DNA of 64,000 nt, taken from NCBI RefSeq assembly GCF_023806465.1, contig NZ_JAMSLS010000003.1, forward strand, positions 186,001 through 250,000. Reading direction: 5' to 3'. Of the stretch, positions 35,444 to 44,713 are shown piece after piece. The stretch comes from Thermomicrobium sp. CFH 73360 (GTDB taxonomy: Bacteria; Chloroflexota; Chloroflexia; Thermomicrobiales; Thermomicrobiaceae). The position numbers were made by a program, and so were the translations under genes. The notes beneath the pieces were generated by a model, which was not told the origin of the DNA, made no database searches, and saw only the letters and a program-made list of their open reading frames with translations. Position 1 is the stretch's first letter. The number at the start of each line of letters is the position of its first letter.

Positions 35444-36814
35444 ATGCTGAAGCTTGCAATCATTCGTGCGGGAAGTGCGGTCTGCGCGCGGGCACTTCTC
35501 GGGGATTCGTTTCTGTTCCCGGGATTTCAGTGGGATTACAGCCGCACCCGGTGGACATTGATGAAGCGCGGCTCCTTGACACGGAACGCGTCGCCTTTCG
35601 GTTGGTGGACGGTTCGGAGCGCGAGCGAGGATTGAGGATTTCAGCAGCGACTGACCGACAGCGGGCAGTCGATAGGGCTGATTCGGTACGAACGCCCCTC
35701 CACGTGGGTATCGACCAGCCGCTACTGTGGACTTCGAGATTCCCAAGCCCTATAGGCTACGGTCGACGATGAGGGACACGGTAGGGATCGGTGGGATTCT
35801 GCGCGGCTTGCGCACGGTGCCCGTCTCTCTGGAGATTGTGGGGAGATGGAGAAGCTGTGTCCGGCCGCGCTGCTTTTGAACCACAGTGAGCCTGGCGAGT
35901 CGGATCCGCATCGTTGATCTTTTCCCTAGAGTGTGCAGGGGACGACGGCGTACTTGGCGCTGCTGGGACTGGATTCTGAGGCTGGAGCCGAGCGAGATGA
36001 ATTATCTGTGTACGGGAATCAATCTCGTTGCGTTTTACGTGCAGCTCAAGTGCCGGCGGGGTGATCTCTAACCAGTGTTACGAGAGCTGGTGCGCGAAGG
36101 CCGCGATCCAGTCTACGGCCGGGTGCGGTTTGCGGTGTTGGAGTTCCTCGGTTACTTTGGAATTGAATCCAGTGAGCACTTTGCGGATTATGTGCCGTGG
36201 TTCATCAAGTGCGATCGGTCGGACCTGATCGAGTAGTTTGGCATTCTCCTGGACGACTATCCGCGGTGGGCAAGGCACAGATGGCGGAATGGGCACAGAT
36301 GCGCGTTGCGCTGCTCGATCCGGATGTGGCAGCACTGAAACGCTATGAAGAAGCTCGTCGGGAGAAGGAGTTGGGTCGGCTGCAGGCGCTGAGATGCGGG
36401 CGTCATGCGGACTGGCTTCGCCAGCGGGGACGAGGAGAAAAAGATAGGTCGTCCACTACACTCGGTGAATATGCGGCAATGATTCTGCATACGTGGAAGA
36501 TGGGGCAGCGGCGGGTGGTCTCGAGGAATGTCATGAACAAGGGGTTGATCGAGAATCTTCCCGACGACTGTTGTATCGAGGTGCTGTGCCTGGTTGGTGG
36601 GAATGAGGTGCAGCCAGTCCGGGTCGGGTCGCCTCAGCTGGTGGCAATCATGCAGACAAAGATTAACAGGCAGCAACTGAAGGGGAAGGCGGCACTGACA
36701 GGACGGCCGGAGCATAGGTACGACGCGGCGCTCATGGATCCCCATACTGCGGCGGAGCTGGATCCGGAAGAGATTGTGAAGCTACGCGATGGCTTGTTGG
36801 CAGCGCATCACTAG
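35444..36814 (+). pseudogene. Glycoside hydrolase family 4 (alpha-galactosidase/glucosidase-like) gene, heavily decayed
   Basis: Fragments in all three forward frames line up in order with an NAD- and metal-dependent GH4 enzyme. They are MLKLAIIRAGSAVCARALLG (from 35444), DIDEARLLDTERVAF, GYRPATVDFEIPKPYRLRST (from 35706), TVGIGGILRGLRTVP, EMEKLCPAALLLNHSEP (from 35843), SVQGTTAYLALLGL, EMNYLCTGINLVAFY, SSEHFADYVPWFIK, then GLIENLPDDCCIEVLCLVGG and HTAAELDPEEIVKLRD to the end. There are at least five frameshifts plus stops at 35915 (TGA), 35927 (TAG), 36069 (TAA) and 36234 (TAG). The metal-binding Cys-His before SVQGT is lost. Overall length (457 codons) is normal, so decay was by small changes, not deletion. 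Confidence 0.9.
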
Positions 36815-37016
36815 TGGCTGCCAGCGAGGTGGGGATGAGGTGCTGGACGCAAGAAAGAGTTATTCTCGACAAATGAGGAGTAGAAATCGGTAACTTCCGG
36901 AGGGCCTGGAAACCCGTCTGCACCGGTTCTCTTGTCCTTCATGTAGCACCTATGTGGTAGAATCGTCCTGCATCTGATCAGGTAAGAGGCGGCACAGAAA
37001 TCTGTGGGGGAACCTG

Positions 37017-39464
37017 GTGCGGCGGGAAAAGCCTGGGCTGGCGCTGCCCTATGCCGTTTTGGGATTGTTAGCTCTGATTGTGATGATAGCCCTTTGGGCA
37101 CGCGAGTATCGGCGGCGTGAACGCCAGGTCGGGGCTGGCGAGGGGAGGAATAGAACGTTGCCGGAACCCGAGCACGCTGCTGCGAAACCAGCTCAGTCAC
37201 TCCTCAGGGATAAGAGCTCTCACATGGAAATGGCAACAGTTAATGCCAAAGAGTTAAGAGTAGAGGATTCTCATTTAGACCACCATCAGAGACTCGTTCA
37301 CATTGGAGATACTACTTCTTATGGTAACAGCACGGTATTTCCTCTAGTGGTCACGAATGAAGATGTCGCTCCACGTAACAGCATTTCTCAGATACGGTAC
37401 GCGGCGGAAAATACCGAGGAGCAGCCGGTGGAGGCGGAGGAAAGATCGGATGACGGGGCGAGCGGAGATTTGAGCGCGGGGTTATCAGCTGGGTCAAGGA
37501 GTAGAGAGGCACTGCCTCCTGCATCTGAGGAGGAAGAGGGAACGAGTCCAGGTGGTGCCGAGCGGGTTATTGGTGGCCATCATGCACCGAATGTTCGCAG
37601 AAGAGCTCCGGAGCGTCGAGGTGGCCGTCATCATCAGGAAGTCGTGAAGGCCAGGACCCCAAAAAGGGTTTACCATTCACGGAATACGTCGTTGAGTGAG
37701 CCTTTTGTGCTCAAATGCCGACTTGAGGGTATGCGGTGGATTCTTGGTTTGGAGTCTCTCCAGGAGGGCATCGAATTCTGGCAGGGTGGAAACCGGCTAA
37801 ATCCGGAGCGTGTCGTTGACACTTTCTATCCGATTCGTGTGCTGGATGATGTACTCGTGCGGTTCCCCTCGGGGCAGGAGGAGCTCTACTCGCTCGCACC
37901 GAACTCGCTTCTGCTCTTCCAGCTGCACGATTTGACGGAAGGAACGTTCACACTTCGAGCGCCTGTTAGAGGACGTCACTACCTGATCATTGCCCCTGCA
38001 CACTCTCTAGCTGAAATGCAAAAAGCGTTCACTTCGGAAGTAGTGGATTTAGAGGATTGGATTGCGTATGTAGTACTCTGGGACCCGGGACAGATTCCTT
38101 CTAGTATCTGGAATAGGCTACACCTTCTGCATGGTTCTGATCGTGTGACCATACAGTTTGAGGGGGAGTGGATAAAAGGTGTTGACCACCGGTATCGGGC
38201 TCTTCGCTCGCCCCCACGGATTCGATGGGATGGGCAAACCACTGTCACCAAACTAGTGCTTCGTCTTGAGGAGCGACGTGCTGGGCGTGTGTGGACGAGG
38301 AGCTTTTCTGTCGAAGGGAACGAGGTGGAGATTCCACCCGCCATTCGGGAAGAGATGATAGACCTTGAAGTCGGAAGGTTTAGTGTTCGCTGTTATGACG
38401 CAGAGGATCAACTCCTTGGAAGCGATGACTTTCGATTGATTGTAGGTCTGCACGAAGTTCGGCGGGAACTGCTCGAGGACAATCTGGTCAGAGTGCAGTT
38501 CATCCTCGCGGATGAATATCATGTTGAACCGGATCAGCTCGAAATATGCCCCGAAGGTGGGAGTCGCGGGTCGAGTTTCATCGTGGATCCGACGCAACGA
38601 CAACGCGACCCGGCGCAGTGGGATCTTCTCCAGTGGAGGGTGATTGCGCCCACTGGTGCGACACTGCCTGTCGGCGTTAACCTGGAGCGGTTCTTTTGGG
38701 TGGTCGAAGACGATTTTGGTCAGGTGCCGCCGGGCGAGCGTTGGGGCAGTCGCCCGACAGGACTTTCACGTCGGGATTTCCAGGCAACTTCATCGAAGAT
38801 TCTTTGGCTGTGGATTCCGCCATCAGTGTCAAGAGAAAGGGCAGCCGTACTCGAGATAGTAGAGAAACGGGAGAAGTTGCAGAACACTTCATTGCGAGTT
38901 GGTAAAAAACCATTCATGAAGATACCTTTACGCGACTTAGGACATCTTGTTCCAGAGAGGGCGGGAGAATATGATCTCCTCTTGCGTATCGCTTCGGTAT
39001 CGCTTCATATTGCAACCATTGAGATTCGTGCCACATGTCGGCGGTGTGGATATGGTGCTGCTGATGAGAAGTTATTGTGGCATCACATTCACAGAGAGCA
39101 CAGCAATGAGTTCTTTAGTGAGATAGATCCTGAAGAGTATTGGTTGAGACAAGGCAAGAAGCTTCCTGAGCGTGTTTGTCAGTGCATGTACTGTGGTATG
39201 GGGTTTGCAGAGGATGGTTGTGACAATGCGAATACACTTGTCGGTCTGCATCAGAGAAAGGAATGCCGTGAGGCTCGTCGGCGATTTCGGGATGGGCCTG
39301 TGACGGAAAGCTTTCGTGTGCTCACGCGTGATCAGCCGAGAGAGATGATCCGCGCGTTGATAGGACAGAAATGGCAGTGTCGGTGTGGCGTGGTTGTTTC
39401 TCTGGAGGAGCAAAAGGAGCATCTGCAGAGGCATCATGCACCGGAACTGCTCGAATATTCTTGA
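37017..39464 (+). CDS. Membrane-anchored protein with C-terminal zinc-finger-like motifs, partner of the DUF1998 helicase
   Basis: An 815-residue protein that I do not recognise. One N-terminal membrane helix (about 9-28) is followed by a polar, probably disordered linker (about 30-225). A large beta-rich region (about 230-660) contains Ig-like strands such as VTKLVLRLEERRAGR. Three metal-binding candidates end the protein: Cys 674/677 with downstream His (CRRCGYG, then HHIHREH), Cys 721/723/726 with LHQRKEC, and Cys 788/790 with HLQRHH. The GTG start follows GGGGGAA. The stop is 11 bases before the helicase gene. Codon use is A+T-richer than the flanks, pointing to transfer. The topology suggests a sensor or scaffold tethering the helicase to the membrane; that is inference. 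Confidence 0.85.
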   Translation: MRREKPGLALPYAVLGLLALIVMIALWAREYRRRERQVGAGEGRNRTLPEPEHAAAKPAQSLLRDKSSHMEMATVNAKELRVEDSHLDHHQRLVHIGDTTSYGNSTVFPLVVTNEDVAPRNSISQIRYAAENTEEQPVEAEERSDDGASGDLSAGLSAGSRSREALPPASEEEEGTSPGGAERVIGGHHAPNVRRRAPERRGGRHHQEVVKARTPKRVYHSRNTSLSEPFVLKCRLEGMRWILGLESLQEGIEFWQGGNRLNPERVVDTFYPIRVLDDVLVRFPSGQEELYSLAPNSLLLFQLHDLTEGTFTLRAPVRGRHYLIIAPAHSLAEMQKAFTSEVVDLEDWIAYVVLWDPGQIPSSIWNRLHLLHGSDRVTIQFEGEWIKGVDHRYRALRSPPRIRWDGQTTVTKLVLRLEERRAGRVWTRSFSVEGNEVEIPPAIREEMIDLEVGRFSVRCYDAEDQLLGSDDFRLIVGLHEVRRELLEDNLVRVQFILADEYHVEPDQLEICPEGGSRGSSFIVDPTQRQRDPAQWDLLQWRVIAPTGATLPVGVNLERFFWVVEDDFGQVPPGERWGSRPTGLSRRDFQATSSKILWLWIPPSVSRERAAVLEIVEKREKLQNTSLRVGKKPFMKIPLRDLGHLVPERAGEYDLLLRIASVSLHIATIEIRATCRRCGYGAADEKLLWHHIHREHSNEFFSEIDPEEYWLRQGKKLPERVCQCMYCGMGFAEDGCDNANTLVGLHQRKECREARRRFRDGPVTESFRVLTRDQPREMIRALIGQKWQCRCGVVVSLEEQKEHLQRHHAPELLEYS

Positions 39465-39475
39465 AGGAGTGCCGA

Positions 39476-42400
39476 ATGAATGAGTCACTGATACTCGTGA
39501 GTGAACGGCTTCGAGCGGTGTATCGGAATTTCCTTTTGACAGAGTTTTGGTTTCGTGAGCCGCTGCTTCGCGATTCGTTCACTGAGGCACTAGGTAGACT
39601 GGAACTTGTACGGGAACCGTATCTCGAACTTGTACCGCGTTACCGCCCAGGAGGCACTCCCCGTGAGATCCTTCGTGAGCTCCTGCGGGAGGAGCCGCTA
39701 GATGCGTTCCTGAATGCGATGCATGGCGATCGTCCGCTCTATCAACACCAGGAAGAGGCACTACGGAGAAGTTGGTTGGGAAGGAATGTCGTTGTAGCAA
39801 CAGGTACTGGTAGTGGGAAGACTGAAGCATTTCTGCTTCCTATACTGTTATACCTTTACCAGGAATGGTTGCAGGGGAAGCTTGGGCCTGGAGTGCGTGC
39901 GCTTATTCTCTACCCAATGAACGCACTCGCCTTTGATCAACGTGCACGCCTAGCAGAGATCGCGCGGGTGCTGAAGGAGCAGGACTCGCCCTTCCACTTT
40001 ACCTTTGGGCAATATACAGGCAATACCCCGGAAAATTGGAAGGATACGAAAAGGGGAGCAGCCGAGTGGGAAGAGTGGCGGGGAGCGCACACGATTTGCG
40101 AAGATGGTCGAGTGATGCATGGCGAACTGATTTACCGAGAAGAGATGCGCAGCGCGCCACCGCACATTTTGATCACGAACTACTCAATGCTCGAGTATCT
40201 ACTGATCCGCCCAAATGATAGTCCATTTTTTGATAACGGTGCCGGGCGGTCTTGGCGCTTTTTGGTCGTGGACGAAGCACATACCTATTCTGGGATTCGG
40301 GGTCAGGAACTCGGGCTGCTACTCAGGAGACTTAAAGAACGTTTGCGACAAGGCGGCAGCGACGGGAACTTCCGTTGTATTGCGACCAGCGCGACGCTTT
40401 TCGCTGGCGACGATGCCCGAAGTCGGGCGGCTGATTTCGCGAATCGACTCTTCGGTGAGTCTTTTTCTTTAGAGGATGTCATTGTTGGTGAGCGGGGACG
40501 ATTAGTTGATTCCCTTCCACCGACGGTGGAGTCAGAACTACGGGAACGGGTGACCCGCCTCGAGGAGGTTTTGCGAGATGGGCCGCGGCCTCTTGATGAG
40601 ATAGCAGGGAACGTATTCCCCGACGAAGAGATGGAACAGCGGAATGAGCGGCTGCTTTCGTTGCTTGATCTGCTGAGTAAATTGGGAGATGCGCCGTTCG
40701 CTCGTCTGCGATTTCACATTTTCGTGCGTGGGCTCGACGGTGCATATATCCGGTTTTCGCCGAGCACGAAAATTGTGTTGTCAAACGAAAACGATGAAAC
40801 GGGGAAGGTTTTTGAGATCGCGCTTTGTCGGGAGTGCGGACAACATTATCTTGTGGGGCAGGTAAAAGGGGATTATTTTGGGATAGCTAATCGAGACTAC
40901 TCGAGTATAGATTTCCGTATAGATTACTTGCTGCCTGTGGAAAGGAGTGAGGAGGCGACACATCGCCTTTGTCCTGTTTGCGGCCGTCTTGTCTCTGTGA
41001 GTAGTTCTTGTTGTGTAGAATCCGAACGCATGATTTCTGTTCGATATGAGCGTGAGGCGCACGACTATGAAAAGGGGGAGCTACGGTATTGCGTGGTCTG
41101 TGGCTCGAGGGGTACAGATCCCGTTAGGGAAATCGTGTATGGGCCGGAATGGCCGCAGGCTGTAATTACGACGAGTCTTCTGGAGATGCTGCCACCAGAC
41201 CGACAGAAATTGTTGGCCTTCGCTGATGGGCGGCAGGATGCGGCCTACTTTGCCGTGCGTCTTGATGTCTGGGCCAGAGATCTGGCAGAGCGTCGTGCTA
41301 TTGTCGCTGCGCTCGAACACGCATCGGAGGAGGAGTGTCGAGACGGGTTTTCGCTGGATGATCTTCACCGGAGACTCTTGGTGGTTGCGCCGCAAATCTT
41401 TCGCGACTCGGCTGCTGCGTCCCCGGGTGAAGTCCGGCGAGCTGCTTGGGTGGCGGTGATTCGGGAGCTCACTGCGACTGAAGACAGCCGATCAATCACT
41501 TCGGCGGGACTTGGCTACTGGCGACTCGCTTGGCCGGGGCTACAGGAGATCCCGCCAGAGATTTTCGGGAACCGACTTCCTCCATCTGCGCGAGTCGGTG
41601 ATGTCGTTGAGGTCCTGCTGTTAACGCTTGTACCAGTTCAGGCTGTGGCGCTTGAACGAGTTTGCTTCGACATGGAGAGATCACAACTAAAATATGTAAA
41701 AATTGGAGCACCTGCTTCGGATAGTACAGTGGTCAGTTGGGACGGTGTCGAGGGAAGGACATTGAACCGGCGCGTCGATTATTTGGTTCGCGTCTTCAAG
41801 AGTCAGAACAACAACTGTGATGAAGCAGAGTTGCGGTCTCAGGCACGGGAATGTCTACGGCGAGTTTGGGAGTGGCTCTTACGGTCGGAACAAGGGCTCC
41901 CAGAGCAGGATCGGTTATTGGTTCCGCATTCTGGGAAGGGGTTCCAGCTTAATCCGCGTTGGTTGCGGTTGATCCCATTTCGGGAGGGGCAGACGGCGCT
42001 GCAATGCACTTGCTGCGGCCGAATAAGTGTGCAACAGGGCTGTGCTTGTCCTAGGTATCGTTGCCCTGGGGTCCTGGAACCGGTGCCGGACCCCTTCAGT
42101 GGTGGTCAGTTCTATCGCGAAGTCTATCGCAATACAGGTAGCTTGCAGAGATTTCTGGTTGAAGAGCATACGGCGCAACTCACGAATATGAAAGCCTATG
42201 AGTACCAGACGAGATTTAGTAAGGGCAATCTTCATGTTCTTAGTTGTTCAACGACATTTGAGCTAGGAGTAGACCTTGGCAGTATCGATGTTGTCTTTAT
42301 GCGCAATGTGCCTCCAGAGCCATTTAACTATGCGCAGCGTGCTGGGCGCGTGGGGCGCCGACAGCGAGCGGGTCTTGTCGTAACCTACTGTCGGAACCGT

Positions 42401-43951
42401 CCTCATGATCTATATCACTTTATGAATCCGCAGCGGTTGCTCAACGGTCATGCGCAGACCATGGTGCCTCGTGCCTGGAGTGATCGGGTCATCGAGCGAC
42501 ACGTGACGGCATTGGTCTTTTCCTGGTATTTCCGGTGCTACCCTACCCGGTTCGGCGATGTCGAGCAGTTAATCGGGGGCGATTGGAAGCAGCCGGCACT
42601 GCTGCAGATATTGAAAGAATTTATTCAAAAACATCGCAGCATCTTGGAAGAAGAGATTGCTGCGGTTTTGGGTGAGACAGAGGCAATTAGAGAAGATTGG
42701 CTCAATAAGATTGTAAGTAGCGATGGAGTACTGGCCCGAGCACTCGCTGAAGTAGGCGAAGATTACCTTGCTGTTCTCAGCTTTGAAGAGGTGTCGCGTA
42801 ACGCTCGCCGATATTCTGACGCCGATTGGGCAAGGCGTCGTGCTGAGACGATAGCGCGAGAAGATGTCTTGTCTTTCTTATCTCGGAAAGCTGTTATTCC
42901 GAAGTATGGTTTTCCCGTTGACGTGGTCGAGTTGATGGTGCCCGACAGTTCGAAGGAGGTTGAGCTGACCCGTGACTTGAGGCTTGCCATCGCGGAATAC
43001 GCGCCTGGGCAAACCGTGATCGCAAACAAGTACGAATGGCGTTCTGGCGGCCTGAAGGTAGTGGCGAGTCGTGCTCTGCCCAGGCGGCAGTATCGAGCCT
43101 GTTTTTGGCATGGTAGTTATGTTGAAGCCGAGTACAGTGGGCCGAATTTGGAATTGTCCTTACCGTGTGGCTGTCGAGGAGAGGTAGGAGAATATGTGCA
43201 GCCGCTCTTTGGTTTCTTTGTACCGAGAGGCGAGAAATGGCAAAAGCGTTCATCTTTCCGTCCACGTGTATCTTTGGCAACCTTGTACTTTGTAGACCAG
43301 GGGCATGAACGGGATCCTTTACCGTCGTTTTCTGAGTATGGACGGCCACCCTGCCTCCGCGTTTCAGCAGTAACGCGACGTACAGTGGTTGTCCTGACGA
43401 AAGGGGAACGAGGCCGTGGGTTCCTCATTTGTCTAGAGTGCGGGACGTGGTTAGAGGGTAATCAGGCCAGAAGGCACGAACATAGCGGGCGTAACGGCCG
43501 GCCATGTGGCGGACAACCAATGCGCGTTGCCTTGGGCCACTCCTTTGTGACGGATGTCGTGCGCCTCGATTTTCTGCTTCCGGTACCTGGTCGCGACGTC
43601 TTCGCCTTAAGTCATGGGTTAGTTGCGGCCATTGTTGCAGGTGTGAGCCTTGTGCTGGAAATTCCTCATACAGAGGTAGGTGGGACGCCGGTTTATGGTG
43701 ATAGTTGCCCTGCAATTGTCCTGTTTGACGACGTTCCGGCTGGTGGCGGTGTCGTGGCACGGCTAGAGAAGGCGACGGTCCTGCGCAGTGTTCTGGAACA
43801 GGCACGTGACCGCCTCAATGGAAGCTGCGGATGCGGGCCCGACGGAAGCTGCTACGCGTGTCTCCGAACATACCGCAATCAGTCGCTGCATAGCGACCTG
43901 CGGCGAGGACTCGTGTACGAGTATCTCAACAGGGTCCTTGAGCACTGGTGA
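39476..43951 (+). CDS. Large DEAH-box helicase with DUF1998-type C-terminus
   Basis: A 1491-residue superfamily 2 helicase. Motifs in order: PLYQHQEEALRRS, Walker A TGTGSGKTE (109-117), DEAH (266-269) in VVDEAHTYSG, ATSAT (303-307), CxxC zinc pairs near 451 (CREC) and 512 (CPVC), a Cys-rich knuckle (CTCCGR, then CPRYRCPG), motif V STTFELGVDLG and motif VI QRAGRVGR (from 954). A C-terminal DUF1998 module has PAIVLFDDVPAGGGVV and a four-Cys site at 1451/1453/1459/1462 with YACLRTYRNQ. DUF1998 helicases occur in MrfA repair and in DISARM (DrmA/B) and Druantia (DruE) phage defence. GAAGGAGT lies 5 bases before the ATG. The gene is strikingly A+T-rich in places (23 of 60 bases G+C in 40861-40920). 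Confidence 0.93.
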   Translation: MNESLILVSERLRAVYRNFLLTEFWFREPLLRDSFTEALGRLELVREPYLELVPRYRPGGTPREILRELLREEPLDAFLNAMHGDRPLYQHQEEALRRSWLGRNVVVATGTGSGKTEAFLLPILLYLYQEWLQGKLGPGVRALILYPMNALAFDQRARLAEIARVLKEQDSPFHFTFGQYTGNTPENWKDTKRGAAEWEEWRGAHTICEDGRVMHGELIYREEMRSAPPHILITNYSMLEYLLIRPNDSPFFDNGAGRSWRFLVVDEAHTYSGIRGQELGLLLRRLKERLRQGGSDGNFRCIATSATLFAGDDARSRAADFANRLFGESFSLEDVIVGERGRLVDSLPPTVESELRERVTRLEEVLRDGPRPLDEIAGNVFPDEEMEQRNERLLSLLDLLSKLGDAPFARLRFHIFVRGLDGAYIRFSPSTKIVLSNENDETGKVFEIALCRECGQHYLVGQVKGDYFGIANRDYSSIDFRIDYLLPVERSEEATHRLCPVCGRLVSVSSSCCVESERMISVRYEREAHDYEKGELRYCVVCGSRGTDPVREIVYGPEWPQAVITTSLLEMLPPDRQKLLAFADGRQDAAYFAVRLDVWARDLAERRAIVAALEHASEEECRDGFSLDDLHRRLLVVAPQIFRDSAAASPGEVRRAAWVAVIRELTATEDSRSITSAGLGYWRLAWPGLQEIPPEIFGNRLPPSARVGDVVEVLLLTLVPVQAVALERVCFDMERSQLKYVKIGAPASDSTVVSWDGVEGRTLNRRVDYLVRVFKSQNNNCDEAELRSQARECLRRVWEWLLRSEQGLPEQDRLLVPHSGKGFQLNPRWLRLIPFREGQTALQCTCCGRISVQQGCACPRYRCPGVLEPVPDPFSGGQFYREVYRNTGSLQRFLVEEHTAQLTNMKAYEYQTRFSKGNLHVLSCSTTFELGVDLGSIDVVFMRNVPPEPFNYAQRAGRVGRRQRAGLVVTYCRNRPHDLYHFMNPQRLLNGHAQTMVPRAWSDRVIERHVTALVFSWYFRCYPTRFGDVEQLIGGDWKQPALLQILKEFIQKHRSILEEEIAAVLGETEAIREDWLNKIVSSDGVLARALAEVGEDYLAVLSFEEVSRNARRYSDADWARRRAETIAREDVLSFLSRKAVIPKYGFPVDVVELMVPDSSKEVELTRDLRLAIAEYAPGQTVIANKYEWRSGGLKVVASRALPRRQYRACFWHGSYVEAEYSGPNLELSLPCGCRGEVGEYVQPLFGFFVPRGEKWQKRSSFRPRVSLATLYFVDQGHERDPLPSFSEYGRPPCLRVSAVTRRTVVVLTKGERGRGFLICLECGTWLEGNQARRHEHSGRNGRPCGGQPMRVALGHSFVTDVVRLDFLLPVPGRDVFALSHGLVAAIVAGVSLVLEIPHTEVGGTPVYGDSCPAIVLFDDVPAGGGVVARLEKATVLRSVLEQARDRLNGSCGCGPDGSCYACLRTYRNQSLHSDLRRGLVYEYLNRVLEHW

Positions 43952-44017: not shown

Positions 44018-44713
44018 TCATCGCTTCCTACGACGGGCCGTGACCGCGTCCACAGAGAGGCGGACCGCGTCCTCGGTGATCTCGGCGATCCATTGGGCTG
44101 GGATATGCAGGTGCTCACCTCCAAAGAGTCCCGGGTCAACGGCGAGGCTCACGATTTCGCCATCCTCGTTGAGGTGCACATGCTCGACCTTGCCAAGCCG
44201 TTCGCCGTCACTGGCGATGACAGCAGTTCCGCGGTCGATGCGAACAGCCTCTTGAGGAAGATTACTCTCGACCTCAACAGGTGGAGTGATTGGGGGAACC
44301 GAGCTCGGCAGAGTGCCGCCGCCAGGCTCGTAGGGCGCAGCACCGAGGTCGGGAACGACGGGTTCGCGAGCCGGGGTGCCCCACAACAGCGGGATCGGGC
44401 CAAACCCGCCCCCACTGGGCCAGACATAGGGGAGGCTGGCGGCTTCTTCCGCCGTGAGGCGCACGAACTCGGCCTCAACAAAAAGCGGGAGTTCTCCGGT
44501 TCGTTCGACATCGAGGGTAAGCCACACCGTTCCGTCTGGTGCAACTGCGTCGATCAGCGCGCGGTCGACGATCCGGTCTTCGCTGAGGAGCCAGCCGCGG
44601 TGCACGATGATCGCTTGCACCTCAAGGGAATTGGGGTCGAGCACCAGCTGGTCCACTGTGCCGATCCGTTTGCCGTCGCGACTCATCACTGGCCGCCCGA
44701 GTTCGATATGCAT
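44018..44713 (-). CDS. Protein with two PRC-barrel domains
   Basis: A 231-residue protein made of two PRC-barrel units joined by a Pro/Gly-rich linker (about 95-145). The first is MHIELGRPVMSRDGKRIGTV, then DPNSLEVQAIIVHRGWLL; the second is IDRGTAVIASDGERLGKVEH, then DGEIVSLAVDPGLFGG. PRC barrels are small beta domains of ribosome maturation factor RimM and photosynthetic H subunits; stand-alone ones bind proteins or ligands and are linked to stress. No signal or membrane segment is visible. AAGGGGG lies 6 bases before the ATG. It is convergent with the helicase gene. Confidence 0.88.
   Translation of the reverse strand: MHIELGRPVMSRDGKRIGTVDQLVLDPNSLEVQAIIVHRGWLLSEDRIVDRALIDAVAPDGTVWLTLDVERTGELPLFVEAEFVRLTAEEAASLPYVWPSGGGFGPIPLLWGTPAREPVVPDLGAAPYEPGGGTLPSSVPPITPPVEVESNLPQEAVRIDRGTAVIASDGERLGKVEHVHLNEDGEIVSLAVDPGLFGGEHLHIPAQWIAEITEDAVRLSVDAVTARRRKR

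What the first reader, a model, noticed from the sequence alone, without database searches (positions are those of the whole stretch)
37017..43951. Two-gene module: membrane-anchored zinc-finger protein plus DUF1998 DEAH helicase, candidate undescribed defence system
Seen: two coupled genes (11-base gap), an 815-residue protein with one membrane helix and three Cys/His clusters, and a 1491-residue helicase with complete motifs and a four-Cys DUF1998 end. The pair is A+T-richer than its surroundings (23/60 G+C at 40861 against 37/60 in a prkA line) and sits beside gene debris. Known: DUF1998 helicases mark DISARM, Druantia and MrfA. Here there is no methyltransferase, no phospholipase-D nuclease and no recognisable Dru partner, and the helicase is of intermediate size. 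Inference: a new two-component DNA defence or repair system tethered to the membrane.
Basis: partly seen in the sequence, partly recalled or inferred. Interest (0 to 1): 0.82.

Follow-up and report, generated by a model that had tools for sequence, protein, structure and literature searches.

The report
Druantia-like two-gene anti-phage module variant
Two neighbouring genes in a heat-loving bacterium most likely form a two-part anti-virus system, a membrane-anchored sensor plus a DNA-unwinding motor, belonging to a widespread but so far unlabelled branch related to the known Druantia defence systems.

Summary
In detail: an 815-aa protein ("P1") and a 1491-aa DEAH/MZB (DUF1998) helicase, 11 bases apart, are AT-richer than their flanks. 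The host is a Thermomicrobiaceae bacterium.

The helicase is DruE-like (YprA family), but its tree clade is separate from Druantia I and III and its whole clade lacks a C-terminal nuclease. P1 matches no Pfam, NCBIfam, PHROGs or PADLOC model, including the DruH models. In 32 of 33 scorable loci from many phyla, including archaea, a P1-type gene sits directly upstream of this helicase. Pairwise distances of the two proteins correlate (r=0.905), and P1 always diverges faster.

AlphaFold gives P1 a membrane helix, a disordered tether, an Ig/FnIII/macroglobulin-like array and three zinc fingers. The array is homologous to that of the DruH-like partner in the sister helicase clade; the link to true DruH is suggestive only. 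The membrane helix and zinc fingers are swappable: relatives carry ribosomal S9, L13e-like or whole sigma-70 modules.

Best reading: a new variant of Druantia-III-like two-component defence, with P1 as sensor/adaptor and the helicase as effector on phage DNA. Anti-phage activity is untested.

The parts
37017..39464 (+). P1: sensor/adaptor candidate, 815 aa, first gene of the module
   Evidence: ORF; P1-type gene directly upstream of the helicase in 32 of 33 scorable clade loci; no hit in Pfam/PADLOC/NCBIfam/PHROGs above cut-off
37038..37109 (+). P1 residues 8-31: single membrane helix, body predicted cytoplasmic
   Evidence: KD19 2.62; helix 9-40 pLDDT ~90; C-flank more positive than N-flank in 10 of 13 TM-bearing relatives, tied in the window protein itself
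37137..37694 (+). P1 residues 41-226: disordered, poorly conserved tether
   Evidence: pLDDT <50 over 41-226; alignment A3
37698..39026 (+). P1 residues 228-670: array of about four Ig/FnIII/macroglobulin-like beta-sandwich domains, the family core
   Evidence: AF2 pLDDT mostly 80-96; Foldseek/VIA matches to complement C5, FnIII arrays and E. coli alpha-2-macroglobulin; homologous to the DruH-like partner of the sister clade
39036..39101 (+). P1 zinc finger 1 (C674-H695)
   Evidence: motif and conservation; weak C2H2 Pfam hits in relatives
39183..39266 (+). P1 zinc finger 2 (C723-C750)
39378..39437 (+). P1 zinc finger 3 (C788-H807; CxC spacing here, CxxC in relatives)
39476..43951 (+). DruE-like YprA-family SF2 helicase, 1491 aa, second gene, 11 bases after P1
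   Evidence: PADLOC DruE1 E 2.3e-152, DruE3 7.6e-133; PDB match 9tu7 DEAD/DEAH helicase
39743..40399 (+). RecA1 domain (residues 90-308) with Walker A TGTGSGKT and DEAH box (D266-H269)
   Evidence: Pfam DEAD 8.2e-20; motifs
42152..42361 (+). RecA2/Helicase_C (residues 893-962), motif VI QRAGRVGRR
   Evidence: Pfam Helicase_C 1.5e-9
43625..43864 (+). MZB / DUF1998 zinc module (residues 1384-1463); the protein ends 29 aa after its last Cys, so no C-terminal nuclease
   Evidence: Pfam MZB 1.2e-8; clade-wide tail of 25-54 aa
35444..36845 (+). Flank: decayed family-4 glycosidase gene (debris), not part of the module
   Evidence: 73% DNA match to the intact gene in G004; Glyco_hydro_4C 4.7e-24
44018..44713 (-). 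Flank: PRC-barrel gene, conserved right boundary of the locus in the genus
   Evidence: Pfam PRC 2.7e-16; found in all 7 genus genomes, with the locus ortholog (78-100% identity) in 6 of them

Best explanation
A two-component anti-phage (or anti-mobile-DNA) module, a new variant of the Druantia-III-like kind. P1 is the infection sensor/adaptor. It is held at the inner membrane by one N-terminal helix with its body in the cytoplasm, reaches out on a long disordered tether, recognises an invader protein or protein-DNA assembly with its fast-evolving Ig/FnIII-like array, and contacts nucleic acid (or the helicase) through its C-terminal zinc fingers. It then licenses the DruE-like 3'-5' SF2 helicase, which loads on single-stranded parts of the entering or replicating phage genome and unwinds it, so that the genome cannot circularise or replicate. 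Neither protein has a recognisable nuclease, so any DNA destruction would be by host nucleases or by a cryptic activity such as the one reported for DruH. Shown here: the pair, its domain anatomy, its co-inheritance, the faster divergence of P1, repeated loss in the genus, and the kinship with the Druantia-III-like partner. Inferred: defence function, sensing role, helicase polarity and substrate (from the families), membrane topology, and the sequence of events.
For: The helicase belongs to the defence branch of the YprA family: PADLOC DruE1 2e-152; a 39-row clade (SH-aLRT 100) groups (99) with the nuclease-less helicases that carry a DruH-like partner. The pair is fixed: 32 of 33 clade loci with enough upstream sequence have P1 directly upstream, gaps -107 to +90 bp, and the 33rd has a P1 fragment. 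The six Chloroflexota genomes found by searching with P1 all have the helicase beside it, though P1 is frameshifted in one, G008. Mirror-tree r = 0.905, 0 of 2000 permutations reach it; helicase identity exceeds P1-core identity in 435 of 435 pairs, as reported for DruH versus DruE (PMC13192584). P1 core versus sister-clade partner: hhalign prob 97.7, E 2.4e-12, reversed control prob 0.5; L029 joins a sister-type N-terminus (E 1e-44) to a P1 core (E 2.5e-82). Turnover: same locus intact in G001 and G003, only a 3' helicase stub in G006 and G004, clean prpB-PRC junction in G005; patchy, 4-5 of 101-400 related genomes. Neighbours elsewhere include Cmr/Cas6/Csx1/CARF, ZorA, DrmD, R-M methylases and AbiEi. 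A related nuclease-less DruH-DruE (1132 + 1667 aa) defends M. smegmatis, is triggered by a phage minor tail protein and blocks phage DNA circularisation (PMC13316683).
Against: No phage assay of any member of this clade was found in the papers searched. PADLOC's DruH models do not see P1, and direct P1-DruH profile comparison is negative. The defence-gene neighbourhood count has no matched control, and many neighbours are housekeeping genes. The module's own flanks here are metabolic genes, not a defence island. Foldseek matches to Ig/FnIII arrays are generic (Z below 8).
Confidence: 0.72

Rival explanations
1. Roles reversed: the helicase is the DNA-damage or DNA-structure sensor and P1 is the effector, as in Hachiman (HamB sensor, HamA effector nuclease); P1 would carry a cryptic nuclease or membrane-damaging activity.
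For: DruH is reported to have dimer-dependent nuclease activity without a recognised nuclease domain (PMC13192584); Hachiman has helicase-sensor logic (PMC12278908 abstract); 13 of 27 P1 relatives have the N-terminal membrane helix.
Against: P1's conserved core is a beta-sandwich array typical of protein recognition, and no nuclease family was found in it. P1 diverges fastest, which fits a sensor. The accessory modules are nucleic-acid or host-machine binders, not enzymes.
Confidence: 0.17
2. A housekeeping or DNA-repair helicase (MrfA/YprA-like) with a membrane-anchored partner that places it at the replisome or nucleoid edge.
For: The MZB domain is shared with the repair helicase MrfA; no defence island in this window.
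Against: Best models are DruE. Patchy occurrence and repeated loss within one genus. Low-GC insertion between unrelated genes. Scattered distribution across phyla with long branches.
Confidence: 0.08
3. An anti-plasmid or anti-transformation barrier: membrane-tethered P1 catches single-stranded DNA entering by natural uptake or conjugation and hands it to the 3'-5' helicase.
For: Membrane helix with a probably cytoplasmic body, zinc fingers and an ssDNA-loading helicase family (DruE polarity from PMC13192584).
Against: Half of the family lacks the helix, so membrane DNA entry cannot be the general function. The only tested relatives act on phage and, in E. coli Druantia III, late in infection.
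Confidence: 0.12
4. It is simply Druantia type III (DruH-DruE) that has diverged.
For: Two genes, same order, DruE-like helicase; P1 core homologous to DruH-like partners, which weakly match DruH (prob 83, E 8e-6); last P1 domain aligns with DruH's third Ig-like domain (prob 49, E 1.8e-4).
Against: Outside the Druantia III helicase clade; no tandem PLD domains; DruH models negative while the E. coli DruH control scores 2539 bits; P1 lacks the DruH-type N-terminal region and has zinc fingers instead.
Confidence: 0.2

Closest known systems
Druantia type III, canonical (DruH-DruE; E. coli, PLD-containing DruE ~2000-2100 aa)
   Same: Two genes, partner first and helicase second, overlapping or a few bases apart; YprA-family DEAH helicase with zinc modules; partner with Ig-like domains that diverges faster than the helicase (PMC13192584).
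   Different: Helicase is 1491 aa with no PLD domains and falls in another clade. P1 is unseen by DruH models and has a membrane helix and zinc fingers instead of the DruH-type (STY4851/YjiT-family) terminal regions.
Nuclease-less Druantia-III-like systems (M. smegmatis MSMEG_1253/1254, DruE 1667 aa; Bell et al. 'Druantia Type III-like' / III-B branch)
   Same: No C-terminal nuclease; two genes; the helicases of my sister clade (mostly 1616-1678 aa, partner 991-1350 aa in most members) match these sizes; partner core is homologous to P1.
   Different: Window helicase is only ~31% identical over its length to that clade, and P1 has different terminal modules. Whether Bell's branch includes the P1 clade could not be checked (supplement not readable here), and the M. 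smegmatis sequences were not at hand, so their place in the sister clade is inferred from size.
Druantia types I, II, IV (DruABCDE; DruMFGE; DruE+DruF+DruL, PMC8565338)
   Same: DruE-type helicase; DruE1 is the best PADLOC model.
   Different: None of the other Dru proteins is present; helicase outside the type I clade.
ARMADA, TALON, DISARM, Dpd
   Same: YprA-family helicase at the core.
   Different: No BrxHII-like helicase, PglX-like methylase, NERD nuclease, RNase H tail, separate DrmB or PLD protein next to the module; no third conserved gene in the clade.
MrfA/YprA repair helicase
   Same: MZB (DUF1998) zinc module, SF2 core.
   Different: Much larger, partner is not an exonuclease, patchy accessory distribution.

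Membership tests
Druantia (any type) | DruE-type YprA-family DEAH helicase with MZB/DUF1998 | tested here: met
   PADLOC DruE1 2.3e-152, DruE3 7.6e-133; Pfam DEAD, Helicase_C, MZB. An ARMADA helicase also hits DruE models (DruE1 4.8e-130), so this shows the lineage, not the type.
Druantia type III | DruH recognised by family models | tested here: not met
   No DruH model is listed for any of 26 P1 relatives (25 of 27 matched families shown), nor for the window P1 alone; positive control E. coli DruH 2539 bits
Druantia type III | Helicase within the type III DruE clade | tested here: not met
   Six type III DruE form their own clade (SH-aLRT 100); the P1-clade helicases form another (100) (quick LG+G4 tree, few references)
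Druantia type III | Two C-terminal PLD domains on DruE | tested here: not met
   Only 25-54 residues follow the last MZB cysteine in 29 clade helicases
Druantia type III | Two-gene druH-druE order, partner upstream and coupled | tested here: met
   11-bp gap here; -107 to +90 bp in 32 loci
Druantia type III | Partner homologous to DruH | tested here: inconclusive
   Homology to the sister-clade DruH-like partner is strong (E 2.4e-12); to true DruH only transitive or weak
Druantia type III-like, nuclease-less branch (III-B of Bell et al.) | Helicase nests in that branch | tested here: inconclusive
DISARM | Separate DrmA/DrmB, DrmC PLD nuclease, methyltransferase | tested here: not met
   Helicase core and MZB in one protein; flanks are the prp operon and a PRC-barrel gene; DrmA models score only E 5e-16 at best
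[quoted passage not shown]
   No such gene adjacent here; no recurrent third gene in the clade
TALON | C-terminal RNase H fold plus NERD nuclease, TPR-CSD, TBP genes | tested here: not met
   No residues left for a C-terminal domain; none of these families recurs among clade neighbours
Anti-phage defence system | Demonstrated protection against phage or plasmid | not testable with these tools
   Needs plating assays

The most novel reading that the evidence does not exclude
The P1 family is a modular sensor platform: a shared Ig/FnIII-like core onto which different lineages have grafted interchangeable host-machine or nucleic-acid binding parts (membrane helix, triple zinc finger, ribosomal protein S9 domain, L13e-like domain, complete sigma-70 factor). 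These grafts act as integrated baits or docking modules that let one helicase effector guard different steps hijacked by phages (membrane entry, transcription, translation), comparable to integrated-decoy domains of plant NLR receptors.
Probability: 0.25. Interest if true: 0.85.

Novelty: new variant of a known kind. Interest (0 to 1): 0.6.

Why it matters
It adds a coherent helicase-plus-sensor clade, found in about ten phyla including archaea and missed by PADLOC because the partner has no model, to the Druantia/ARMADA lineage. It links the DruH-type partner to a wider family of Ig-core sensors with swappable modules. That makes a concrete question testable: does the variable module (zinc fingers, sigma-70, S9) decide what the system senses, with the helicase as a common effector? 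The window system comes from a thermophile, which may help structural work.

Tried and rejected
P1 against Pfam, PADLOC, NCBIfam, PHROGs, PDB sequences, plasmids and phages: nothing above cut-off. Foldseek of the P1 model against PDB and BFVD gave only generic Ig/FnIII/macroglobulin and phage-tail arrays; DruH (9tud, found by sequence) is not among the matches listed, and whether the structure library holds it is not known, so its absence means nothing. Direct P1-DruH profile comparison failed; a combined P1 + sister-partner core aligned with DruH's third Ig-like domain with prob 49 in one direction and only 2-3 in the other. Considered and rejected: canonical Druantia III, DISARM, ARMADA, TALON (membership table). 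A P1 profile scan of viral contigs could not be made (too few conserved stretches); a helicase scan of viral contigs gave one remote hit. Integrated decoy as the general rule was weakened because S9 and L13e-like modules may simply be RNA/DNA-binding parts, and the L13e match passes Pfam's cut-off in only one protein. GIH50614.1 and MSMEG_1253/1254 could not be found with the collections at hand.

Full report
OBSERVATION. P1 is 37017-39464 (GTG, 815 aa); the helicase starts at an ATG at 39476 (1491 aa), 11 bases after P1, behind an AAGGAG ribosome-binding site. The stretch has 52-57% G+C against 58-66% around it. The helicase has DEAD, Helicase_C and MZB (DUF1998) domains. P1 has one N-terminal hydrophobic helix and three Cys/His clusters. 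The upstream debris is a decayed glycosidase-4 gene, intact in relative G004. The nearest named genome is a Thermomicrobiaceae MAG holding the orthologous pair.

HELICASE. Its best PADLOC models are DruE1 (2e-152) and DruE3 (8e-133). In a tree of 73 YprA-family helicases, including reference DruE of types I and III and an archaeal ARMADA-like helicase, it falls in a 39-member clade (SH-aLRT 100). That clade sits next to a 21-member clade of ~1630-aa helicases (the two and one small lineage join at 99), and both are apart from the Druantia I and III references (a quick LG+G4 tree with long-branch warnings, so deep joins are provisional). It is ~31-32% identical over its full length to the sister clade, and 25-37% over partial stretches to the references. 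In 29 clade members only 25-54 residues follow the last MZB cysteine, so no C-terminal nuclease was found in this clade, unlike the two PLD domains of canonical DruE (PMC13192584, PMC12458937).

THE PAIR IS A UNIT. A scan of 85,000 species genomes for the helicase gave 80 loci. Of 38 non-redundant clade loci, 33 have at least 900 bp upstream, and 32 carry a P1-core gene directly upstream, gaps -107 to +90 bp; the 33rd has a P1 fragment. Hosts span Chloroflexota/Thermomicrobiota, Bacillota, Acidobacteriota, Bacteroidota/Rhodothermota, Planctomycetota, Pseudomonadota, Thermodesulfobacteriota, Bipolaricaulota and a Methanophagales archaeon. Searching Chloroflexota genomes from the P1 side gave six genomes with P1 (frameshifted in one, G008), all with the helicase beside it, plus one fragment. 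Pairwise distances of the two proteins correlate at r = 0.905 (0 of 2000 permutations), and the helicase is the more conserved in 435 of 435 pairs, mean identity 48% against 27%. No third gene recurs.

P1 ANATOMY. AlphaFold2 with 26 relatives gives a helix 9-40, a disordered stretch 41-226, a confident beta-sandwich array 228-670 and a zinc-finger region 671-815. The array resembles macroglobulin, FnIII and Ig chains (complement C5, fibronectin, E. coli alpha-2-macroglobulin; Z up to 7.5), which identifies the kind of fold, not a function. In 13 of 27 relatives an N-terminal membrane helix is present; in 10 of these the C-terminal flank is the more positive (in the window protein itself it is tied), which suggests a cytoplasmic body.

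KINSHIP WITH DruH. The sister clade's partner (A4) shares the array: hhalign prob 97.7, E 2.4e-12 over P1 269-680, against prob 0.5 for a reversed control. L029 (Desulforudis) joins an A4-type N-terminus (E 1e-44) to a P1-type core (E 2.5e-82). A4 in turn aligns with DruH from six annotated type III loci (prob 83, E 8e-6; control 0.1). P1 and DruH do not match directly, though a combined core aligns with DruH 624-746, its third Ig-like domain (prob 49, E 1.8e-4), in one direction. PADLOC DruH models miss both P1 and A4 while the E. coli control scores 2539 bits. So P1 is most simply a DruH-like protein whose terminal parts were replaced; the last link is suggestive, not proven.

SWAPPABLE MODULES. 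Around the core, relatives carry different ends: triple zinc fingers (in the window and most relatives), Ribosomal_S9 domains in three members (E 2.7e-14; sequences), L13e-like tails (Pfam 1.6e-5 in L056; related tail in L024, phmmer 9e-14; weaker in others), and complete sigma-70 regions 2-3-4 in five proteins: four Acidobacteriota members with sigma in the N-terminal half, and the isolate Ktedonobacter racemifer with it at the C-terminus (the assignment of the five to these loci rests on the sequences of L060 and L099 and the close similarity of L058, L068 and L050 to L060). This pattern argues for an adaptor/sensor with variable docking or bait parts.

TURNOVER. In the genus the module lies between prpB and a PRC-barrel gene. 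It is intact in the window genome, G001 and G003 (G003 has two P1 genes, each 37-38% identical to the window's P1, before one helicase). It is reduced to a 3' helicase stub in G006 (flanks 91% identical to the window) and in G004. In G005 prpB meets the PRC gene with nothing between. Such repeated loss suits an accessory defence module. Neighbours in other genomes include type III CRISPR parts, CARF, ZorA, DrmD, R-M methylases and AbiEi among 115 flanking ORFs, but no matched control was run.

MECHANISM. From the literature: canonical DruE loads on 3' ssDNA and DruH is the likely phage sensor, with Ig-like domains, faster divergence and a dimer-dependent nuclease activity (PMC13192584). In M. 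smegmatis a nuclease-less DruH (1132 aa)-DruE (1667 aa) pair, close in size to my sister clade, is triggered by a minor tail protein and blocks phage DNA circularisation (PMC13316683). By analogy, P1 senses and licenses; the helicase acts on phage DNA. Defence, sensing, polarity and topology are inferences; no assay of this clade was found.

NOVELTY. Bell et al. (PMC12458937) describe a distinct Druantia-III-like branch that mostly lacks nucleases. The passages read do not mention P1 or its modules, and the supplement could not be read, so the helicase clade may already be counted there. The P1 family, its homology to the DruH-like partner and the modular ends were not found in the papers searched. 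Verdict: new variant of a known kind.

Noticed in passing
L060, L058, L068, L050 (partner genes upstream of the helicase) and L099 (1916-5938): Complete RpoD-like sigma-70 regions fused in frame to the Ig-core partner protein; in L060 the order is r2-r3-r4 with r1.2 after r4, and in Ktedonobacter racemifer (isolate) sigma is C-terminal. Apparently two separate acquisitions.
   Followed up: partly
L021:3714-6026, L026:3325-5748, L027:1171-3261: Ribosomal protein S9-like domain at the C-terminus of the P1 relative in Bacteroidota, an archaeon and Acidobacteriota.
   Followed up: partly
L029:2326-5916: Desulforudis partner protein combining the sister clade's DruH-like N-terminus with the P1-type core: an evolutionary bridge.
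   Followed up: yes
L015:1-4460: Relative G003 has two P1 genes in tandem (each 37-38% identical to the window's P1) before one helicase, as if two sensors share one effector.
   Followed up: partly
L132:3528-3974 and L133:6379-6800: Two relatives (G006, G004) keep only the last part of the helicase gene, with stubs that start at nearly the same place (window ~43508-43524); why the two deletions end so close together is unexplained.
   Followed up: partly
own genome C2:40.2-45.1 kb and C35 (L018, L019): A second YprA-family helicase (1687 aa, closest here to an archaeal ARMADA-like helicase) lies in a 15.5-kb segment that is 100% identical on two contigs; its partner genes were not identified.
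   Followed up: partly
window 35444-36845: Decayed family-4 glycosidase gene next to the module; intact in G004.
   Followed up: yes
L040:2807-5941, L044:2759-5935: Two Bacillota P1 relatives with long N-terminal extensions probably account for the two DUF3427 matches (best E 1.8e-7) in the Pfam scan; not checked one by one.
   Followed up: no
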